Shown in pieces: positions 5,595 to 16,416 of a stretch of 23,098 nt of DNA. Location of the stretch: positions 1 through 23,098 of the IMG/VR virus record IMGVR_UViG_3300028392_000299. One strand, given 5' to 3'. Source of the DNA: a virus. The position numbers and the translations under genes were made by a program. The notes beneath the pieces were generated by a model. That model worked only from the letters and a program-made list of their open reading frames with translations, ran no database searches and was not told where the DNA came from. Within the stretch, counting starts at the first letter, position 1, and every line of letters starts with the position of its first letter.

Positions 5595-5999
5595 ATCCAC
5601 CGGTTGTGGTTTTTTACCTATGTTATACTTTGGTACTAACTGCCAATCATTTTTTTCTTTATGTGAAATAATCTTTACCTGAGACAAAGACACAGTTGGC
5701 TCCTTGGTCTTTTCAGCATTGACAATCTTAATAAGTTCCCAATCTCCCAATAAATTGGTAACAGTATTTCTCCGAGCGATATCATTCTCGGTTAGGTCTG
5801 TTGGCTTACCATCCAATGAGAATAGTTCTTTGAAGTGTACAATATAATATTTGCCTTGCTTATGCAGGATGTGGCAAGATTGGTACAAAATTTTTTCTTT
5901 TTTTGATGCTACACCAATGCGGGTGAGTGTTTCTCTTACCTTTAGGAAATCATCTCTTTCATTCAAGGTCACCTCTACCATGTCTTCTATTTTAATCAT
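5589..5999 (-). CDS. regA: RegA translational repressor, 136 aa
   Basis: RegA binds AU-rich sequences over the start codons of phage early mRNAs (in T4 including 44, 45 and 62) and represses translation. The N-terminal IEDMVEVTLNERDDFLKVRETLTR block and the segment HILHKQGKYYIVHFKELF match the T4 RegA family. The length is 136 aa versus 122 in T4, with a basic, proline-containing C-terminal extension. It sits directly after 62 with a one-base TAATG overlap, the classic 44-62-regA order. GGAG lies about ten bases before the start. Confidence 0.93.
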   Translation of the reverse strand: MIKIEDMVEVTLNERDDFLKVRETLTRIGVASKKEKILYQSCHILHKQGKYYIVHFKELFSLDGKPTDLTENDIARRNTVTNLLGDWELIKIVNAEKTKEPTVSLSQVKIISHKEKNDWQLVPKYNIGKKPQPVDK

Positions 6000-6379
6000 T
6001 ATTTCTTCACTCCGCCTTTATCTAGTTTTTCTTTTATCAAAGCGATATGTTCTTCTGATAGAATGCGTAATGCTTCTTTAGCTTTTTCATTTGAATAGCC
6101 AAAATATTCTTTCACACAATCCAAGTCCTTAACCACGACCTGTTTTTGCCAGGCCTGAAACTTTCGTTTTATAGGTCTGATGGTATTTAGAAGATATTGA
6201 TATTGAAGTTTTTTAGGTAAATTGTGATTCATATTCATCTGGTTCGCATATAAAATGCAATCCATGTGATATGAGAGTGAGCGGTTTACTATGAATGGTG
6301 CATAGTCACTTTCGTTCTCAAGTACATCTTTCTTAGACAGTAAAATACTTGGAACAATGTCTTTGAATAAATCGGCCAT
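5999..6379 (-). CDS. 62: Clamp loader small subunit gp62, 126 aa
   Basis: Partner of gp44 in the ATP-driven loader that places the gp45 clamp on primed DNA. The protein has no ATPase motifs, as expected. It starts MADLFKDIVPSILL and contains DYAPFIVNRSLSYHMDCI and a KKLQYQYLLNTIRP block, recognisable from gp62 of divergent T4-type phages. At 126 aa it is much shorter than T4 gp62 (187 aa), the short form seen in the cyanophage-like branch. Its position between 44 and regA confirms the call. It overlaps both neighbours by one base. Confidence 0.88.
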   Translation of the reverse strand: MADLFKDIVPSILLSKKDVLENESDYAPFIVNRSLSYHMDCILYANQMNMNHNLPKKLQYQYLLNTIRPIKRKFQAWQKQVVVKDLDCVKEYFGYSNEKAKEALRILSEEHIALIKEKLDKGGVKK

Positions 6380-6843
6380 TATTTGTAATCTGTATGGCTA
6401 TATTTCATCAGTTCGACGATTTCTTCTTCGGACATTTTATACACAGGAATACATGCTTCCTGTTTGATAGGAATACCAATCATTTTAGTACCAAATTTGG
6501 TTGTGTATTCAATTGTCCTAAATTCTTTTGGAGATAGACGGTAAACCCAACCGTCCGAGAAGTGTTTGAATTTAATATGTGGAACTGAAACAATATAAAG
6601 AACGTCAACTTTCCTACACTTGTTCAACTGGTTCGGCCGAAAGGAAAAACAGTTGGCAAAAACGTAAGGTGATTCGGTTTTAACTTCAACTTTTTTACCG
6701 TCAACGAGCATATCTTTTTCATGGTCATACTTGTTGATAGAATGTTCAATCACAAGACCCGGATGAAGTCGATTTAACATATTCGTTACAACCTTTTCAC
6801 CAGTCAAACCCAGTTCTCCCATTTTTTCTTCACGTGTCATCAT
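6379..6843 (-). CDS. PD-(D/E)XK nuclease-like protein, 154 aa
   Basis: The pattern fits the restriction-endonuclease-like fold: an N-terminal helix with GLTGEKVV (E16), a short segment, then D44 and the strand with E53-x-K55 (KKVEVKTE). These are the metal-binding and catalytic positions of the PD-(D/E)XK superfamily. The later FRPNQLNK and VDVLYIVSVP segments match the usual core helix and following strand. Possible roles are Holliday-junction or flap cleavage, or host DNA attack; the substrate is unknown. ATG at 6843 is preferred over an upstream GTG in frame at 6855. Inserted between clamp-loader genes 44 and 62, it would be made together with them. Confidence 0.7.
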   Translation of the reverse strand: MMTREEKMGELGLTGEKVVTNMLNRLHPGLVIEHSINKYDHEKDMLVDGKKVEVKTESPYVFANCFSFRPNQLNKCRKVDVLYIVSVPHIKFKHFSDGWVYRLSPKEFRTIEYTTKFGTKMIGIPIKQEACIPVYKMSEEEIVELMKYSHTDYK

Positions 6844-6851
6844 AATATATC

Positions 6852-7793
6852 TCACTTAAATCCACATTCAACCATCAATTCAGTCAAGCAAGCAACTAAA
6901 TTAATTTCTTGGTCTGCAACAAAGGCCGCCTGATATTGATATTTTGCAAGGACCAGAACAGCAATAGGAATACTATCCGGTAACAAATATTCGTACATGT
7001 TATCATAGATTTTACGTATGATAGTTGCACTATCTGAATCAAGATTATTAGTTACCCACTTACGTGACGTACCAAAATCTTTAGCTTTTAATGCTTTAAC
7101 AAGTTCTGTAATATTAATATCAGAAACAATGCCAAGAATACCTTTGTCGATACTTTTATCTGAGTTGGAAGAATATCTTTGAAGTTCATTTAAGACACGA
7201 CGATTATCTGGAAAGTGTTTAGTAATAACAGCGGCAACCACTTGCTTATCATAAGTTACACCTTCTTCAGAAAGAATCCATTCTAGACGCTTAAAGAATT
7301 GTGAGGCCATTTTAGCTTTTTGGCCATTTTGTAATTTGAATTCAACAACAGAACAACGGGAATGCAGTGCTTCCATAATCTTATGTTTGAAGTTGCAAGT
7401 AAAAATGAAAGAACAATTAATTGCGAATTCTTCAATAGAGCCACGAAGTGCGGCTTGGGCATTGTGAGACAAGTAATCAGCCTCATCAATAATGATGACC
7501 TTTCGGCCACCAGAAAGACTCATTGATGATGCATAATTCTTGACTTTGATTCTGATGTCGTCAACGCCATTTTCGTCCGATCCGTTGATGACAATATAAT
7601 CGCAGCCAACTTCTTCACAGAGGGCTTTTGCAATCGTTGTTTTACCGACCCCTGCGGATCCAGTAAGTAGCAAATTTGGGATTTCTTTTCTGTCAACATA
7701 TTCCTGAAAGGTAGATTTAATAGACTCCGGAAGAATACAGTCCTCAATTTTATGAGGACGATACTTTTCCACCCACAACATTTGTTTGCTCAT
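6852..7793 (-). CDS. 44: Clamp loader ATPase gp44, 313 aa
   Basis: AAA+ ATPase that, with gp62, opens and loads the gp45 sliding clamp. Walker A is GSAGVGKT (45-52), Walker B IIIDEAD (100-106), sensor 1 is in FTCN (131-134) and the arginine-finger motif SRC is at 145-147. The N-terminal LWVEKYRPH is the universal clamp-loader start. The length is close to T4 gp44 (319 aa). GGAG lies seven bases upstream of the ATG. Confidence 0.97.
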   Translation of the reverse strand: MSKQMLWVEKYRPHKIEDCILPESIKSTFQEYVDRKEIPNLLLTGSAGVGKTTIAKALCEEVGCDYIVINGSDENGVDDIRIKVKNYASSMSLSGGRKVIIIDEADYLSHNAQAALRGSIEEFAINCSFIFTCNFKHKIMEALHSRCSVVEFKLQNGQKAKMASQFFKRLEWILSEEGVTYDKQVVAAVITKHFPDNRRVLNELQRYSSNSDKSIDKGILGIVSDINITELVKALKAKDFGTSRKWVTNNLDSDSATIIRKIYDNMYEYLLPDSIPIAVLVLAKYQYQAAFVADQEINLVACLTELMVECGFK

Positions 7794-10669: not shown

Positions 10670-10942
10670 TTAAACGGCTTGTGGGCGAACACCCATAGCA
10701 CGGCATTGTGCTTTGAAAGACTTGGAAGGAGTTCCAAGACGGTAAACAGCAACCTTAGAGCCATCAGCACGCGACTTAATGTTGGTGTAGATAGCATAGC
10801 CTTCTGTACGCAACTCAGCAATACGTGCGGCAACATTGCTGATACCAAAACGTGTGCGAGCCTGTGCTACGCTGAATGTGTTGTAACCTTCCTTCTTAGT
10901 CAAGGCTTGCAACATTTTTTCTTTAGCGGTTAATTTTTTCAT
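10670..10942 (-). CDS. Small winged-helix-like DNA-binding protein, 90 aa
   Basis: Starts MKKLTAKEKMLQALTKKEG; then FSVAQARTRFGISNVAARIAEL (22-43) reads as a helix-turn-helix, and GYAIYTNIKS...VAVYRLG as the wing hairpin. Such proteins usually bind DNA as regulators; the C-terminus is basic. ATG at 10942 is chosen over an upstream in-frame ATG at 10954 because GGAG is seven bases before it. It forms a separate unit with its own promoter (10992-11020) and terminator (10612-10654), and a TGCTC-TTGT-GAGCA hairpin in its leader (10972-10985). An early, abundantly made regulator is the likely reading. Confidence 0.75.
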   Translation of the reverse strand: MKKLTAKEKMLQALTKKEGYNTFSVAQARTRFGISNVAARIAELRTEGYAIYTNIKSRADGSKVAVYRLGTPSKSFKAQCRAMGVRPQAV

Positions 10943-10991
10943 AATAAACTCCATTTTAAATTTAAGAACACTGCTCTTGTGAGCAAATCAT

Positions 10992-11045: not shown

Positions 11046-12401
11046 TTACCGTCCCACTTGCGGCAAATATTTTTGCTTGGTTTCTTCCCAAGACATATAT
11101 ACCAAATCATCATAGAACAGAGTTTCATATGAAACATTGTTCTTCTTTTGTAGTTGACGAATTCGACCTTTGGCATACTTCAATTTCCAAAGTTCCGAAA
11201 GTGCTTCTTCGGATGTATCAAAAGATTTAACGAGTTGGTCCTCCGTAATTTCTCCACGGAGAAACTCATTGGTATTATTGTAGAGTGGTGAAAAATAGAT
11301 ACCACGTTGGTGTGCTGTACGTGTTAACTCTTTTGGAATACCAAGTTTTGGATACAAGAAATGTAATGAACGATTCTTGTGGTCGCGTTTGAACGGCAGA
11401 CCTTTATCATTCTTAGCTTCCCACCATTCAAAGTATTTCTCCGTATGGTTTTCTTTGAGCCAATTCCAAAGCATGTTTAGTGTAGATTTACGAGGTTCGA
11501 AAGCAACCGAACCGGACGAGAAACCCATTTTGTTCCAGTGTTCAAGACCATCATACTGAGATAGACCACCAGACTTAGTATTTCCGTAAAGAGAAGTGGT
11601 TGTAACTCCAGCAAGAACATCACCATACTTTTCTTTCCACAATTTTTGAACTGTGTCAGATAAACAAAGCAACGCAAGTAATTTACCACCCATGTAATTG
11701 AAACCAAGTGGCTGGAGTGGAACAATAGAAGAACCAATTGCAGTGTGGTTAATCATACCACCTTGAGTTTTCTTTTCACGTTCCCAACCAATAGCAGTAT
11801 CACGTGGTGTCAAGTCAAGAAAGTCGGAAGAAATACAGATAACACCAAGATACTTACCAGTAGCATCATCTTTGACAATGAAGTTAAGATTACGACCAAT
11901 GTTTGAGTTGTTCTTCATCGTTGAGATAAAGGTACGTGTCGTGTTCCACAATATAGGAAGGTCTTTGGTACGTTTTTTGTCGCTTTTTATGGTTGTACCG
12001 TCAATTCCTGTCGTGAATTTTGATCCGGAGTCATCAGTAAATTCCATGACAGGACGTAGATTCATGAAGTCATCAGGTGATTCTGGTATCCAGATGTTGC
12101 TCTTGGCAAGGTCGATATACTTACCCTGTTCTCCATCGACAAGAACCTTTTCATCACCCCAAAAGGTGTTGTTTGTTTTTGTAGGAAACTTTTCTTGCAC
12201 TTCACACCACTTCTGGAACAAAGTATATTCTTTAACATCCATACCGGATGCATAAGTCAAATCTTCGGTAAGAACTTTCTTCAGTTCTTCGGTATCAATG
12301 TGTTCAAAGGAACTTTTTGGATTCTTTTCAGACCAATCTTCCCATTGTTTCTGAACATGTGTTGGCCACTTTTCGTTTTCAGTTTCAGAATCGTTTGACA
12401 T
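11046..12401 (-). CDS. DUF4338/DruA-like protein, 451 aa
   Basis: No T4 homologue recognised. Residues 168-302 follow the pattern I know from DUF4338 proteins, the family of DruA of the Druantia anti-phage system. In order: a G-x-x-L-x-F-x-V segment, LGVICISSDFLDL, RDTAIGW (200-206), an LQPLGFNYMGGKLLALLC segment, W..KYGD (255-261), TTTSLYG (267-273) and WNKMGFSSG (289-297). The acidic N-terminal 110 residues and the basic C-terminus are extra. DruA biochemistry is unknown to me. The call rests on remembered motifs, not a search. It overlaps the deformylase by 17 bases and is the last gene of the operon. Confidence 0.55.
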   Translation of the reverse strand: MSNDSETENEKWPTHVQKQWEDWSEKNPKSSFEHIDTEELKKVLTEDLTYASGMDVKEYTLFQKWCEVQEKFPTKTNNTFWGDEKVLVDGEQGKYIDLAKSNIWIPESPDDFMNLRPVMEFTDDSGSKFTTGIDGTTIKSDKKRTKDLPILWNTTRTFISTMKNNSNIGRNLNFIVKDDATGKYLGVICISSDFLDLTPRDTAIGWEREKKTQGGMINHTAIGSSIVPLQPLGFNYMGGKLLALLCLSDTVQKLWKEKYGDVLAGVTTTSLYGNTKSGGLSQYDGLEHWNKMGFSSGSVAFEPRKSTLNMLWNWLKENHTEKYFEWWEAKNDKGLPFKRDHKNRSLHFLYPKLGIPKELTRTAHQRGIYFSPLYNNTNEFLRGEITEDQLVKSFDTSEEALSELWKLKYAKGRIRQLQKKNNVSYETLFYDDLVYMSWEETKQKYLPQVGR

Positions 12402-13023
12402 TAAATTTTTCTTTCACCTTGTTAATCATCATTTTTTGAATCTTGTGCCTTTGTTCGGCAAGTTTAGAACGTTTCTTGATTGCCATTTGCAAAGCCAACG
12501 GCTTCATATGCACAGTATACACTATTCCGTTCATATGGTCAAGTTCATGTTGAAAGCAACGAGCAGTTAATCCGGCAAACTTGGCTGTTTTGGTAACACC
12601 GGTGAAATCTTGGTACTCCACTTCAATTGTGGAGGGACGTTCAATGTTTAGGAATAAATCCATATAAGAAAGACATCCTTCTTCCATTCGTATTGTTTCT
12701 TCTGAAACAGAAATGATTTTTGGATTGAAGAATGCAACATATTCATCACCTGTACCCATTACAAACACACGATAATTATAACCACATTGATTAGCCGAAA
12801 GACCTAAACCATTGTGCTTCTTACAAGTTTCAACTAAAGAACTTGCAAAAGTGTTTGGATCAACTGAGGGATTTTTGAAATCAAATTCTGGCAATGTGGA
12901 TTTTAACGCAGAATGAATTTCTGGAACTAATGGAAATATTTCAACTTTTTTAGAGATTATGGGTAAATCTTTTTTCCACGCATCTGTGTCAATTATTAAA
13001 ACACCATTTTTTATATCACTCAT
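12385..13023 (-). CDS. def: Peptide deformylase, 212 aa
   Basis: Removes the formyl group from nascent N-terminal methionine, a metal (Fe/Zn/Ni) hydrolase. All three motifs are present: GLGLSANQCG (72-81; usual form GxGLAAxQxG), EGCLS (115-119; metal Cys) and HELDH (159-163; two metal His and catalytic Glu). It has an extra N-terminal stretch of about 50 residues before the core and a basic C-terminus. Phage deformylases are best known from cyanophages, where they act on rapidly made proteins. ATG overlaps the 46 stop by four bases. Confidence 0.94.
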   Translation of the reverse strand: MSDIKNGVLIIDTDAWKKDLPIISKKVEIFPLVPEIHSALKSTLPEFDFKNPSVDPNTFASSLVETCKKHNGLGLSANQCGYNYRVFVMGTGDEYVAFFNPKIISVSEETIRMEEGCLSYMDLFLNIERPSTIEVEYQDFTGVTKTAKFAGLTARCFQHELDHMNGIVYTVHMKPLALQMAIKKRSKLAEQRHKIQKMMINKVKEKFNVKRF

Positions 13024-14735
13024 TTTACGACCTGTGAAAAGTTATTTGTTTTTTGGAATTTAATTATAGACCTAAACTTATCAAAAAGTTGGTCACCTTT
13101 ATGGGATATCACAAAAACATTCGTGCTATTATCTAGGCTGTTCAAAAGTTTGAGGAATTCTTCTGTACCAACACCGTCAAGGGAAGAATCAAACACTTCA
13201 TCGAGAACCAATAGATTAGTGTTTACAGAGTTCTTCATCTTGGCAATTTGTCTCCAAGTGAACAATAAAGCAAGGTCGATACGCATCTTTTCACCTTCGG
13301 AGAATGATGCATAGGAGAATTCATCACGATGACGAGACTTAATTATTTCTTCAAACGATTCGTTCAGATTAAAATTGACAAAGAAGTCCATCGAGGTTAA
13401 ATACTTGTTAATCAACTTGTTCATAACAGGGAGATATTGTTTGATAATCTTTGTTTTGATACCTGTATCCCTAAGAAGTGTTGCCGCAAATTCTTGGTAT
13501 TGTTTATCTAAAGAAAGTTTTTCAGCAAGATTTTTTGCTTCTTGTAATTCGGCATTCAAAACCTTTAATTTTTCATCATTATTTTCTGTTGATACTGTAC
13601 GTGTTCTAAGTTCATCAACCTCTCTCAATAGTTTTGCATTGTACGTATTGATGCCTGTTACTTGTGTATTCAGTTTAACAATTTCGGAATTGTGTGAATT
13701 GATGTGATTTTGCACACCTTCAATTTCTTTTAGACGGTCGTAAACGTTCTGTAGTTCTTGTTCCAACTTTGTTGTTGCAGTTGTTATTTCTGTAATCTTG
13801 AGTTGTTTACCTGTTACTTGACTATCTTTTGTTTCCGTTGCAATAGCTTGTTGACATGTTGGACAATTATCATTTGTTTCATAAAATGTAATTTCTTTAT
13901 TTAATTTTCTAACATTGTCTCCAAACTTAGATTGTAGAGTTATCAACTTTGTGTTTCTAGATGATACAGTAGTTTTATCGGAAATTTTATCCGTCAACTG
14001 TTTAATGTGTTTTTGTATTAATTCAATATCTTTTGCAATCTTGTTTAGATATATACCATTGTCTGTAACTTCTTTAACCTTTTTGTTGATTTCAACAAGA
14101 TGGTTTTTCTTATGTTCTTCTAAATTTTGTTTCTGTAAACTTATCTTCTCACCAGCCAACTTGATTGTATAGTCAACCGTTTTCTGTTCATCTTTAATTG
14201 AAGTGATTCTATTCTTAACAATAGAATTCATTGAAGAAAAGATTTGGATGTCCAGAAGGTCTTCGATGATTGTTCTACGGTCAGCAGGTGATAGTTGCAT
14301 GAACGGAACAAAAGATGCTGAGCCTAAAATAACAACTTGTGTGAAAGACTTGTAGTTTAGTTTTAAGATGAACTTCTCAAGATGTTCTTGATAATCTTTT
14401 GCTTTAGCATCTTGGTTTACCAAAGTACCATCACAATAGATTTCAAAGATGTTTGGTTTGATTCCACGAACAATTTTATATTGCTTCTTACCAATATTAA
14501 ACTCAATCTCAACCACACAATCCGAATTATTGATCGTGTTTATCAACTGTGGTTTATTGATTTTACGGAATGACTTACCGAAAAGACCGAACGTGAGTGC
14601 ATCCAGAATCGTGGATTTACCCGCACCGTTGTGACCAACGATAAGTGTGTTCGTTGATCGTGTAAGTTCAATTTCAGTGAATGCGTTGCCGGTTGAAAGA
14701 AAATTCTTCCAACGAACTTTTTCAAAAGTAATCAT
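13020..14735 (-). CDS. 46: Recombination nuclease subunit gp46 (Rad50/SbcC-like), 571 aa
   Basis: SMC-like ATPase that partners gp47 in resecting DNA ends for recombination-dependent replication and host DNA breakdown. Walker A GHNGAGKST is at 34-42. Two coiled-coil arms flank the zinc hook CPTC (291-294). The signature FSEGEKMRIDL and Walker B LLVLDEVFD lie near the C-terminus. The length (571) is near T4 gp46 (560). The start overlaps the oxygenase stop by one base. Separated from 47 by the oxygenase gene. Confidence 0.96.
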   Translation of the reverse strand: MITFEKVRWKNFLSTGNAFTEIELTRSTNTLIVGHNGAGKSTILDALTFGLFGKSFRKINKPQLINTINNSDCVVEIEFNIGKKQYKIVRGIKPNIFEIYCDGTLVNQDAKAKDYQEHLEKFILKLNYKSFTQVVILGSASFVPFMQLSPADRRTIIEDLLDIQIFSSMNSIVKNRITSIKDEQKTVDYTIKLAGEKISLQKQNLEEHKKNHLVEINKKVKEVTDNGIYLNKIAKDIELIQKHIKQLTDKISDKTTVSSRNTKLITLQSKFGDNVRKLNKEITFYETNDNCPTCQQAIATETKDSQVTGKQLKITEITTATTKLEQELQNVYDRLKEIEGVQNHINSHNSEIVKLNTQVTGINTYNAKLLREVDELRTRTVSTENNDEKLKVLNAELQEAKNLAEKLSLDKQYQEFAATLLRDTGIKTKIIKQYLPVMNKLINKYLTSMDFFVNFNLNESFEEIIKSRHRDEFSYASFSEGEKMRIDLALLFTWRQIAKMKNSVNTNLLVLDEVFDSSLDGVGTEEFLKLLNSLDNSTNVFVISHKGDQLFDKFRSIIKFQKTNNFSQVVK

Positions 14736-15352
14736 TATCTAAATTTTGGTCCTAGTATCCAAGTAACAAGGGTTTTTCTAAGTCCGCTAGTCACGGGATT
14801 TACCTGATGTGGTATGAAAGAAGGAAACATTAAAACTTGTCCTTTTTCCAACCTAATTGGAATTCCACGACCTGGTCCTGAAACCTCTAAAGACAAATCT
14901 CCACCTTCATATTCCGATGAATCACTTAACATTACAATGAGGCTGAGTTTACGCATGTGTTCAAAGATGTACTGTCCATCGAATCCATATCTAATGTCTG
15001 CATGAAATTTTTGGTGGCCACCAACATCATATTCCGCATATTGCATATACTTATAACCAATAAGGTCAAAACCAAATATAGTGTCATTATAAAATCCAAC
15101 CAAGGTATTGATTTTATCATAAATCCATCGATTCTGTGAATCTGGTTGTTCTATAAAATGTAGTCTTGCTTTTCTTTCTTCATAATCATGACCATTAAAT
15201 AACTCGCCATCTCGCAACATAAATTGAGAACAATAATTGGAAATTGTATCGATTTCTCCTGGCACAAAAAAACCAGTGTCAATGTAATATTGTGTTGGTG
15301 TTATTAGTCTTTTTTCTGGTTCATTTACCAGTCTTGTGGCGTATCCGTTCAT
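14735..15352 (-). CDS. 2-oxoglutarate/Fe(II) dioxygenase (prolyl 4-hydroxylase type), 205 aa
   Basis: Fe(II)/2OG-dependent hydroxylase. The iron facial triad is visible as H117-x-D119 (FHADIRY) and H182 (PHQVNPV), with R192 in GLRKTLVTW as the 2OG carboxylate ligand. The LSLIVMLSD and EGGDLSLE strands are standard P4H core elements. Such genes are widespread in T4-type cyanophages; the substrate is unknown and could be a protein side chain or a nucleic acid base. It lies exactly between 47 and 46 with one-base overlaps on both sides. Confidence 0.88.
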   Translation of the reverse strand: MNGYATRLVNEPEKRLITPTQYYIDTGFFVPGEIDTISNYCSQFMLRDGELFNGHDYEERKARLHFIEQPDSQNRWIYDKINTLVGFYNDTIFGFDLIGYKYMQYAEYDVGGHQKFHADIRYGFDGQYIFEHMRKLSLIVMLSDSSEYEGGDLSLEVSGPGRGIPIRLEKGQVLMFPSFIPHQVNPVTSGLRKTLVTWILGPKFR

Positions 15353-16416
15353 TATGTTTCCTCATTCAATGCTTCTATATACAGTTCCCTGAGTAGGTTC
15401 TTTATTCTATCTTTTTCCAAATCAGTTGTCAAGTTATCGACATACTTATTTAGAATTGTTGTTGTATCTTCTGCTTGATCTATATCATCATCAGTGAAGT
15501 CTTCAGTTTCAGTGAAGTCTTCGGCAATTGTAATATCAATTGGTACGGCTTGGTAAATATTGTTGATAAAGGTATCAAACAAATATGGATTTGTTTTGTT
15601 CAAAACAACCACTTTGACGTATGCCGTTTTTAAATGTGTTAAGTCCATCGATGTAATGTCTTTAATTTCCACATCCTTATCATCATAAACAACTTTGATA
15701 AACATACGATTAGGATTCTGTATGAATTCCAATTCATGTGTCTTCAAATCAAAGATATGAAATCCACGTGGATCATCATAGTCCTGCCAAGTTAATTCAT
15801 ATGGATTGCCAAGATAATGAATGTTCTTTCTACTTGACTTGTGGTGATAATGTCCAGAAAACACCATATCAAACTTATCAAACATCTTTGGTTCTAGTCC
15901 CTCATGTGAAGGTGCACCACGATACATTTGGAAGCCCTCAATCTCAAAGTGTCCCATGCAGATTGTGGCTTCTGTAAGTTTCAATGTATCCATAGAATCA
16001 GTATAATTCTCGGCACAAATCCATGGCATCATGCAAATTGAAGTTTCACCAATAACAAGATGAGGTGTCGGACCCTTTATGATATTAATGTTATCATATT
16101 CTTCTAGCACAAGTCTAGGTGAATTAACTTCATTTGTGTTCTTGTAATATGTATCATGATTACCCACCAACATATGAACTTTGATACCACGGTCGGCCAA
16201 CTTGTCAAAGAACATCTTCTTTGCACGTTGAAGTGAATAGAAGTTTACATACTTACGTCTATCAAACGTGTCACCAAGAATAAGCAGAGTGTTAATTCCG
16301 GCAGAATCAATAGCAGGAAAAAATGTTTCATCATAAAATGTTTCATAGAAATCCAAAAAGTGGAGAGAGTCATTTCTAGCCCCGAAATGTTGATCTGTTA
16401 TTATTGCTACTTTCAA
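15352..16416 (-). CDS. 47: Recombination nuclease subunit gp47 (Mre11/SbcD-like), 354 aa
   Basis: Metallophosphoesterase-fold nuclease of the 46/47 complex. Motifs: DQHFGAR (D8, H10), GDTFDRR (48-54), GNHDTYY (85-91) and SGHYHH later. The length is close to T4 gp47 (339). The start is TTG at 16416: the first residues (KVAIITDQH) are the conserved first strand, and AAGGA lies six to seven bases upstream. No ATG is available at that place. It overlaps the end of the nucleotidyltransferase gene by 41 bases. Confidence 0.95.
   Translation of the reverse strand: MKVAIITDQHFGARNDSLHFLDFYETFYDETFFPAIDSAGINTLLILGDTFDRRKYVNFYSLQRAKKMFFDKLADRGIKVHMLVGNHDTYYKNTNEVNSPRLVLEEYDNINIIKGPTPHLVIGETSICMMPWICAENYTDSMDTLKLTEATICMGHFEIEGFQMYRGAPSHEGLEPKMFDKFDMVFSGHYHHKSSRKNIHYLGNPYELTWQDYDDPRGFHIFDLKTHELEFIQNPNRMFIKVVYDDKDVEIKDITSMDLTHLKTAYVKVVVLNKTNPYLFDTFINNIYQAVPIDITIAEDFTETEDFTDDDIDQAEDTTTILNKYVDNLTTDLEKDRIKNLLRELYIEALNEET

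What the first reader, a model, noticed from the sequence alone, without database searches (positions are those of the whole stretch)
11046..12401. DruA/DUF4338-like protein encoded by the phage
The 168-302 segment matches the order of conserved blocks I associate with DUF4338, the family of the Druantia defence protein DruA. In a phage core operon next to 46 and peptide deformylase it may be an ancient nucleic-acid enzyme, a decoy for Druantia, or an anti-competitor factor.
Basis: partly seen in the sequence, partly recalled or inferred. Interest (0 to 1): 0.6.

Follow-up and report, generated by a model that had tools for sequence, protein, structure and literature searches.

The report
Phage replication-operon relative of defence protein DruA
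A T4-like phage carries, inside its own DNA-replication genes, a virus-specific relative of the bacterial anti-phage protein DruA; its predicted fold and the gene company kept by its cousins suggest that it acts on phage DNA in the way the DNA-modifying enzyme Mom does, rather than tricking the defence system.

Summary
The 451-aa ORF 11046-12401(-) is a member of Pfam PF14236 DruA (75.5 bits, cut-off 27). It is under strong purifying selection (dN/dS about 0.03-0.1) and is co-operonic with gp46 and peptide deformylase. AlphaFold2 gives a GNAT fold, and the best solved match is phage Mu Mom, narrowly ahead of other GNATs. Within PF14236 it falls in the GGK / TTSLYG / SQY branch together with genuine Druantia DruA, but in a separate, mostly viral clade. 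At least 596 viral contigs carry relatives. They form three subfamilies: A beside gp46/def (this window), B between clamp-loader genes gp44 and gp62, and C among clamp, clamp loader and DNA polymerase, often beside Mom genes. Best reading: a replication-coupled, Mom-like DNA-directed (probably acyl-transferring) protein. Fold and operon linkage are shown; the chemistry is inferred, and Mom's signature residues are absent. A Druantia decoy is unlikely. DruA-like proteins in six Synechococcus phages were already reported (PMC12774648), and DUF4338 had been called a GNAT (PMC10853773). The Mom link and replisome synteny appear to be new.

The parts
11046..12401 (-). phage DruA-like protein, subfamily A (451 aa)
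   Evidence: PF14236 75.5 bits; PADLOC DruA1 E 2e-15; AF2 model pLDDT 87.8, pTM 0.83; dN/dS about 0.03-0.1
11217..12071 (-). GNAT-fold domain (residues 111-395) inside the DruA-like protein
   Evidence: VIA-align: Mom 8bv8_A Z 9.2 over model residues 111-384, other GNATs Z 8-8.8; domain modelled alone: Mom 8bv8_B Z 11.6 over 168 residues, SpeG 11.0 over 145
11679..11714 (-). invariant QPxGxNxxGGKL stretch (residues 230-241), at the place of the GNAT/Mom beta4-alpha3 loop
   Evidence: invariant or nearly invariant in 49 viral and mobile-element sequences; GGK also in bacterial Druantia DruA
11583..11600 (-). TTSLYG motif (residues 268-273)
   Evidence: T268 T269 L271 Y272 G273 invariant in A4; TTSLYA in large bacterial DruA
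11544..11561 (-). SQYDGL motif (residues 281-286)
   Evidence: Y283 invariant, S281 and Q282 nearly so; SQY in bacterial DruA
12385..13023 (-). peptide deformylase, overlaps the DruA-like ORF by 17 bases
   Evidence: PF01327 126 bits; def within 1.5 kb upstream in 95 of 130 subfamily-A loci
13020..14735 (-). gp46 (SbcC/Rad50-like recombination endonuclease subunit)
   Evidence: phrog_77 E 2e-175; within 1.5 kb upstream in 114 of 130 subfamily-A loci
15352..16416 (-). gp47 (SbcD/Mre11-like subunit)
   Evidence: phrog_100 E 1e-116
10670..10954 (-). small winged-helix protein just downstream
   Evidence: HTH_39 33.6 bits
8460..9143 (-). gp45 sliding clamp
   Evidence: phrog_223 E 6e-61
6852..7793 (-). 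gp44 clamp-loader large subunit
   Evidence: phrog_168 E 3e-123
5999..6379 (-). gp62 clamp-loader small subunit
   Evidence: phrog_225 E 2e-39

Best explanation
The gene encodes a virus-lineage member of the DruA (DUF4338) family: a GNAT-fold domain (residues about 111-395) with an alpha-helical N-terminal part, made together with the phage replication and recombination proteins. Most likely it acts on phage DNA as it is replicated, either transferring an acyl-type group to a base or backbone site, or serving as the DNA-recognising partner of such a modifier. That would protect phage DNA from nucleases, as Mom does. Shown here: family membership, predicted fold, purifying selection, and replisome synteny in three subfamilies, with Mom genes beside subfamily C. 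Inferred: that it binds DNA, uses an acyl-CoA, modifies DNA and protects it. The chemistry cannot be identical to Mom's, because Mom's signature residues are not kept.
For: PF14236 over cut-off. AF2 model at pLDDT 87.8; Mom is the best PDB match for the whole protein (Z 9.2, 186 residues) and for the domain alone (Z 11.6, 168 residues), narrowly above ordinary GNATs. Profile-profile chain: GGK-type DruA to NLAS-type DUF4338 98.4%, NLAS-type to Mom 97.6%, all 18 unrelated controls at 0.9% or less. Type A: gp46 upstream in 114 of 130 loci; type B: gp44 upstream in 61 of 61 and gp62 downstream in 54 of 65. Type C: clamp and/or clamp loader nearby in 6 of 12 sequence clusters, Mom within 5 kb in 4 of 12, and no Mom in 286 other loci. 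L326 encodes NLAS-type DUF4338, Mom, Mom, GGK-type DruA, DNA polymerase B, clamp and clamp loader in a row. Two further type-C contigs hold 2 and 4 Mom genes, and S-SSM7 (type B) holds one. Strong purifying selection.
Against: Direct profile comparison with Mom fails (2.2%). The protein has no PF25680 match and lacks Mom's HYS, Ser124 (the residue mutated in the inactive 8bv8) and SFAD..YQASNF motifs. The classical GNAT pyrophosphate loop is not recognisable. Fold similarity shows no activity. No Mom was found on the subfamily-A phage contigs and genomes searched, and no thymidylate-synthase-type hydroxymethylase on the six searched. The genomic association with Mom is limited to subfamily C and a few B phages.
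Confidence: 0.42

Rival explanations
1. A non-catalytic DNA-binding accessory of the replication or recombination machinery: the GNAT fold has lost its chemistry and serves as a recognition or scaffold module for the clamp, clamp loader or gp46/47.
For: Replisome adjacency in subfamilies A, B and C. Mom signature residues and a classical acyl-CoA loop are absent. Conserved motifs are peculiar to this branch.
Against: Conserved polar and charged motifs (GGK, TTSLYG, SQYDG) line up with Mom/NLAS active-site segments, which looks like a retained pocket. Beside Mom genes in type C.
Confidence: 0.27
2. A protein acyltransferase for host take-over, modifying for example RNA polymerase or ribosomal proteins, as proposed for other phage GNATs; the deformylase next to it would fit a role in protein N-terminal processing.
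For: GNAT fold, with ordinary GNATs scoring nearly as well as Mom. def recurs near types A and C. Phage GNATs with such roles are reviewed in PMC7824862.
Against: The neighbours are replication and recombination genes rather than early take-over genes. The closest sequence link runs through NLAS-type DUF4338 to the DNA-modifying Mom.
Confidence: 0.14
3. A decoy or inhibitor of host type I Druantia that mimics DruA and titrates its partners.
For: It belongs to the same branch as genuine Druantia DruA, including one beside a PADLOC DruE1 helicase.
Against: Viral and bacterial sequences form separate supported clades with long branches. Two paralogues per phage are common. Fixed position in core operons. 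Structural relatives in giant viruses of eukaryotes. Hosts of the cultured relatives are streamlined Pelagibacter and marine Synechococcus, where Druantia is not known to me (own knowledge, untested here).
Confidence: 0.06
4. A weapon against competing phages or plasmids: a captured defence component used in superinfection exclusion.
For: Family name and defence role of DruA.
Against: No DruE helicase and no DruBCD-like set beside it. The viral clade shows no sign of recent capture from Druantia loci.
Confidence: 0.04

Closest known systems
DruA of type I Druantia (PF14236, DUF4338)
   Same: Same Pfam family and same branch: GGK, TTSLYG/A and SQY motifs; hhalign 99.7% with bacterial DruA including the Druantia-located Meiothermus protein
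   Different: Separate viral clade; no DruE helicase; part of a replication operon
DruA-like proteins of six Synechococcus phages (Phold paper, PMC12774648; subfamily B here, PHROG 19197)
   Same: Homologous (26-29% identity to type-B sequences over the full alignment; phrog_19197 E 1e-28)
   Different: Subfamily B sits between gp44 and gp62; the window protein is subfamily A beside gp46/def, has a longer N-terminal part, and several phages carry both
Phage Mu Mom (PF25680), DNA adenine modification enzyme
   Same: Best structural match (8bv8, Z 9.2 and 11.6); homology through NLAS-type DUF4338; adjacent genes in subfamily C
   Different: No PF25680 match and no Mom signature residues; direct profile comparison negative
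NLAS/ETFVD/YRAANW-type DUF4338 proteins
   Same: Same Pfam family; hhalign 96-98%
   Different: Different motif set close to Mom; two examples lie beside transposase-type genes; in the tree separated by a 100/100 branch
GCN5-related N-acetyltransferases (SpeG, PaiA, AAC(6')-Ib)
   Same: Shared fold, Z about 8.2-8.8 (whole protein) and 10-11 (domain)
   Different: No recognisable sequence similarity; extra helical N-terminal part and long insertions

Membership tests
DruA family (PF14236 / DUF4338) | Profile match above the curated cut-off | tested here: met
   75.5 bits against 27
DruA family (PF14236 / DUF4338) | Motifs shared with bona fide Druantia DruA (GGK, TTSLYG/A, SQY) | tested here: met
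   Alignment with PADLOC-DruA1 proteins L262, L297, L303
Druantia defence system | DruE helicase and DruBCD-type partners beside DruA | tested here: not met
   Neighbours are gp46, gp47, def, HTH, kinase, gp45, gp44, gp62; the only helicase found is UvsW
GNAT superfamily | GNAT fold | tested here: met
   List of PDB matches is nearly all GNATs, Z 8-9 whole, 10-11.6 domain; literature also calls DUF4338 a GNAT (PMC10853773)
GNAT superfamily | R/Q-x-x-G-x-G/A acyl-CoA pyrophosphate loop | tested here: inconclusive
   The invariant QPxGxNxxGGKL occupies this place but only its last glycine position fits (by inspection)
GNAT superfamily | Acyl transfer activity | not testable with these tools
   Needs biochemistry
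Mom family (PF25680) | Profile match to PF25680 | tested here: not met
   No match for the window protein at E 0.001 or for its homologues at E 1; no PF25680 in the window
Mom family (PF25680) | Conserved residues HY(S), E-L-x-R, Ser124, SFAD..YQASNF | tested here: not met
   Mom alignment against GGK-branch alignment and hhalign bridge; Gly238 falls near the place of Ser124
Mom family (PF25680) | Mom fold | tested here: met
   8bv8 is the top-ranked chain in both searches, though within 1 Z unit of other GNATs

The most novel reading that the evidence does not exclude
DruA-type proteins are replication-coupled DNA-modifying acyltransferases. T4-like phages use them, alone or with Mom, to make a so far undescribed modified base, and bacterial type I Druantia would have co-opted the same chemistry to mark or read DNA.
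Probability: 0.27. Interest if true: 0.85.

Novelty: new variant of a known kind. Interest (0 to 1): 0.58.

Why it matters
The papers I could search give no biochemical activity for DruA. A viral clade that sits in the replisome operon of many aquatic T4-like phages, and in one subfamily directly beside Mom genes, gives a concrete, testable hypothesis for what a DruA domain does: act on DNA during replication. It would also show that a 'defence' family name hides a broader nucleic-acid enzyme family shared by phages, mobile elements, bacteria and perhaps giant viruses. Cultured phage-host pairs exist (HTVC008M and Mosig on Pelagibacter HTCC1062, S-SSM7 on Synechococcus WH8109), so virion DNA can be analysed directly.

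Tried and rejected
Sequence search of the PDB: no match. Foldseek against the PDB: only weak GNAT matches, E 0.04 or worse. Direct hhalign against Mom: negative with every GGK-branch alignment tried; only the NLAS bridge links them. Thymidylate-synthase-type hydroxymethylase (PF00303) in this window and five related records: none, so the T4 route to modified cytosine is not supported. Mom in subfamily-A phage contigs and genomes: none. Recent capture from Druantia: rejected by the tree. Genome-collection hits were checked for phage genes: L260 and L261 carry T4-like replication genes, L255 and L256 show none of the window's phage genes, L253 and L254 are undecided. Papers linking DUF4338 to Mom: none found. 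Whether the hosts carry Druantia could not be tested because no named host genome was at hand.

Full report
OBSERVATION. Pfam PF14236 'DruA' (the former DUF4338) matches residues 151-383 at 75.5 bits against a curated cut-off of 27, and PADLOC's DruA1 model matches at E 2e-15. The gene is preceded on the same strand by gp46 and peptide deformylase; the deformylase overlaps it by 17 bases, and gp46 overlaps the deformylase by 4. Pairwise dN/dS with relatives of 70-98% identity is about 0.03-0.1 where dS is measurable.

DISTRIBUTION AND SUBFAMILIES. tblastn against phage records finds Pelagibacter phages Mosig (58%) and HTVC008M (53%) over nearly the full length, and 25 Synechococcus phage records over the core at 31-44%. 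Scans of viral contigs give 348, 343, 117 and at least 596 relatives, depending on the query. Three groups can be told apart by sequence and by place. Type A (this window): gp46 lies within 1.5 kb upstream in 114 of 130 testable loci and def in 95 of 130. Type B (the cyanophage form): gp44 lies upstream in 61 of 61 and gp62 downstream in 54 of 65. Type C lies among clamp, clamp-loader and DNA polymerase B genes in 6 of 12 sequence clusters. Many phages carry both A and B: HTVC008M and the contigs behind L062, L188, L176, L073, L063 and L059 each have two PF14236 matches. L231 encodes an A and a B protein on one 13-kb stretch.

FOLD. AlphaFold2 with 43 viral homologues gave pLDDT 87.8 and pTM 0.83. 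Residues about 111-395 form a GNAT fold; residues 10-110 are mainly helical. Among solved structures re-aligned by VIA-align 2, the first is phage Mu Mom (8bv8, Z 9.2, 186 residues), followed by SpeG-type acetyltransferases (Z 8.8, 145 residues). With the domain folded alone Mom is again first (Z 11.6, 168 residues; next SpeG 11.0, 145 residues). These gaps are under one Z unit, so the fold class is firm and the preference for Mom is only suggestive; it rests mainly on the longer aligned length. PMC10853773 had already called DUF4338 a GCN5-like acetyltransferase domain.

TWO BRANCHES OF PF14236. Bacterial members were collected from 398 genomes of one phylum, of which 17 matched, and from a Meiothermus plasmid where DruA stands beside a DruE1 helicase. 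Alignment shows two kinds. One has GGK, TTSLYG/A and SQY motifs; it holds the large PADLOC DruA1 proteins and all the phage proteins of subfamilies A, B and C. The other has NLAS, ETFVD and YRAANW-like motifs. A PMSF maximum-likelihood tree separates them with 100/100 support, and separates a mostly viral clade (97/94) from the bacterial DruA clade (96/89). Profile comparisons give 98.4% for GGK-type against NLAS-type and 97.6% for NLAS-type against Mom; 18 control pairs with unrelated phage families stay at or below 0.9%; GGK-type against Mom directly is negative at 2.2%. In the NLAS-Mom alignment Mom's N-x-E-S (Ser124) falls on N-x-A-S, and SFAD..YQASNF falls on ETFVD..YRAANW. The GGK branch keeps none of these; it has its own invariant residues: QPxGxNxxGGKL 230-241, TTxLYG 268-273 and Tyr283. 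So the window protein is remotely related to Mom, but it is not a Mom, and if it is an enzyme its active site has been rebuilt.

MOM NEXT DOOR. In subfamily C, genuine Mom genes (PF25680, E about 1e-43) stand close to the DruA-like gene. In L326 the order is NLAS-type DUF4338, Mom, Mom, GGK-type DruA, DNA polymerase B, clamp, clamp loader. In L331 a Mom lies between the DruA-like gene and the clamp loader, and in L337 two Moms precede the polymerase, clamp, DruA-like gene and clamp loader. Mom lies within 5 kb in 4 of 12 type-C clusters and in none of 286 other loci (some of those loci share contigs). Two further type-C contigs hold 2 and 4 Moms elsewhere, and S-SSM7 (type B) and the cyanophage-like contig G004 hold one each. 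Mom relatives are found in only 226 of 50,697 phage records, so the association is not expected by chance. Subfamily-A phages, including the 166-kb contig behind L002 (98% identical protein), showed no Mom.

MECHANISM. What is shown is family, fold, constraint and replisome linkage. What is inferred is that the protein acts on DNA during replication, most probably as an acyl-transferring modifier or as the DNA-recognising partner of one. The conserved loop in the place of the acyl-CoA binding loop, the conserved Thr/Tyr motifs in the place of Mom's active-site segments, and the co-operonic Mom and NLAS proteins all point that way. The lack of Mom's residues leaves room for a non-catalytic DNA-binding role, which I rate as the main rival. 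A protein-directed acetyltransferase is possible, because the deformylase recurs near types A and C and ordinary GNATs score almost as well as Mom. A Druantia decoy is unlikely: the viral clade is deep, the gene sits in conserved core operons, often as two paralogues, and structural relatives occur in giant viruses (Faunusvirus, E 1e-19).

NOVELTY. DruA-like proteins in six Synechococcus phages were noted by PMC12774648, and the GNAT nature of DUF4338 by PMC10853773. I found no earlier report of the Pelagibacter-type and clamp-type subfamilies, of the fixed replisome synteny, of the NLAS bridge to Mom, or of the Mom-DruA operons; subscription papers and bioRxiv were largely not searchable. I call it a new variant of a known kind.

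Noticed in passing
L326:2642-11151 (IMGVR_UViG_3300042566_001028): One phage operon encodes NLAS-type DUF4338, two Mom proteins, GGK-type DruA, DNA polymerase B, sliding clamp and clamp loader: three related GNAT-type families beside the replisome.
   Followed up: partly
G422 (contig of L333), 22737-25762: Four Mom-family matches in about 3 kb of one phage contig that also carries a type-C DruA-like gene.
   Followed up: no
BFVD A0A3G4ZXG3, A0A5K0UAJ3, A0A3G4ZRA1: Predicted proteins of giant viruses (Faunusvirus, Yasminevirus, Dasosvirus) match the DruA-like model strongly; two of them are over 1100 residues long.
   Followed up: no
L288:118-3617: A bacterial GGK-type DruA stands directly after a TniQ gene, which suggests a Tn7-like or related mobile element carrying DruA without Druantia.
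   Followed up: partly
L289:29-2690 and L290:2-2322: NLAS-type DUF4338 proteins lie beside transposase-type genes (UPF0236, Tn5-type) and, in L289, an AAA/ABC-type ATPase N-terminal fragment.
   Followed up: partly
L253 and L254 (MAG contigs named Thermoplasmata archaeon SG225.bin14): Tandem pairs of DruA-like genes, 2 bases apart, on two 7-kb contigs; whether these contigs are phage or cellular is unclear.
   Followed up: partly
L260 (CP070751.1, 'Thermoplasmata archaeon bin33 chromosome'): A T4-like block (type-B DruA, gp62, regA, hsp20) lies inside a 5.2-Mb 'chromosome', which suggests a misjoined or contaminated assembly.
   Followed up: no
6379-6855, - strand: A 158-aa protein without Pfam or PHROG match lies between gp44 and gp62, the slot that type-B DruA occupies in cyanophages.
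   Followed up: partly
12385-13023, - strand; L315:2380-2973; L333:116-697: Peptide deformylase recurs near DruA-like genes of both types A and C; a functional tie is unexplained.
   Followed up: no
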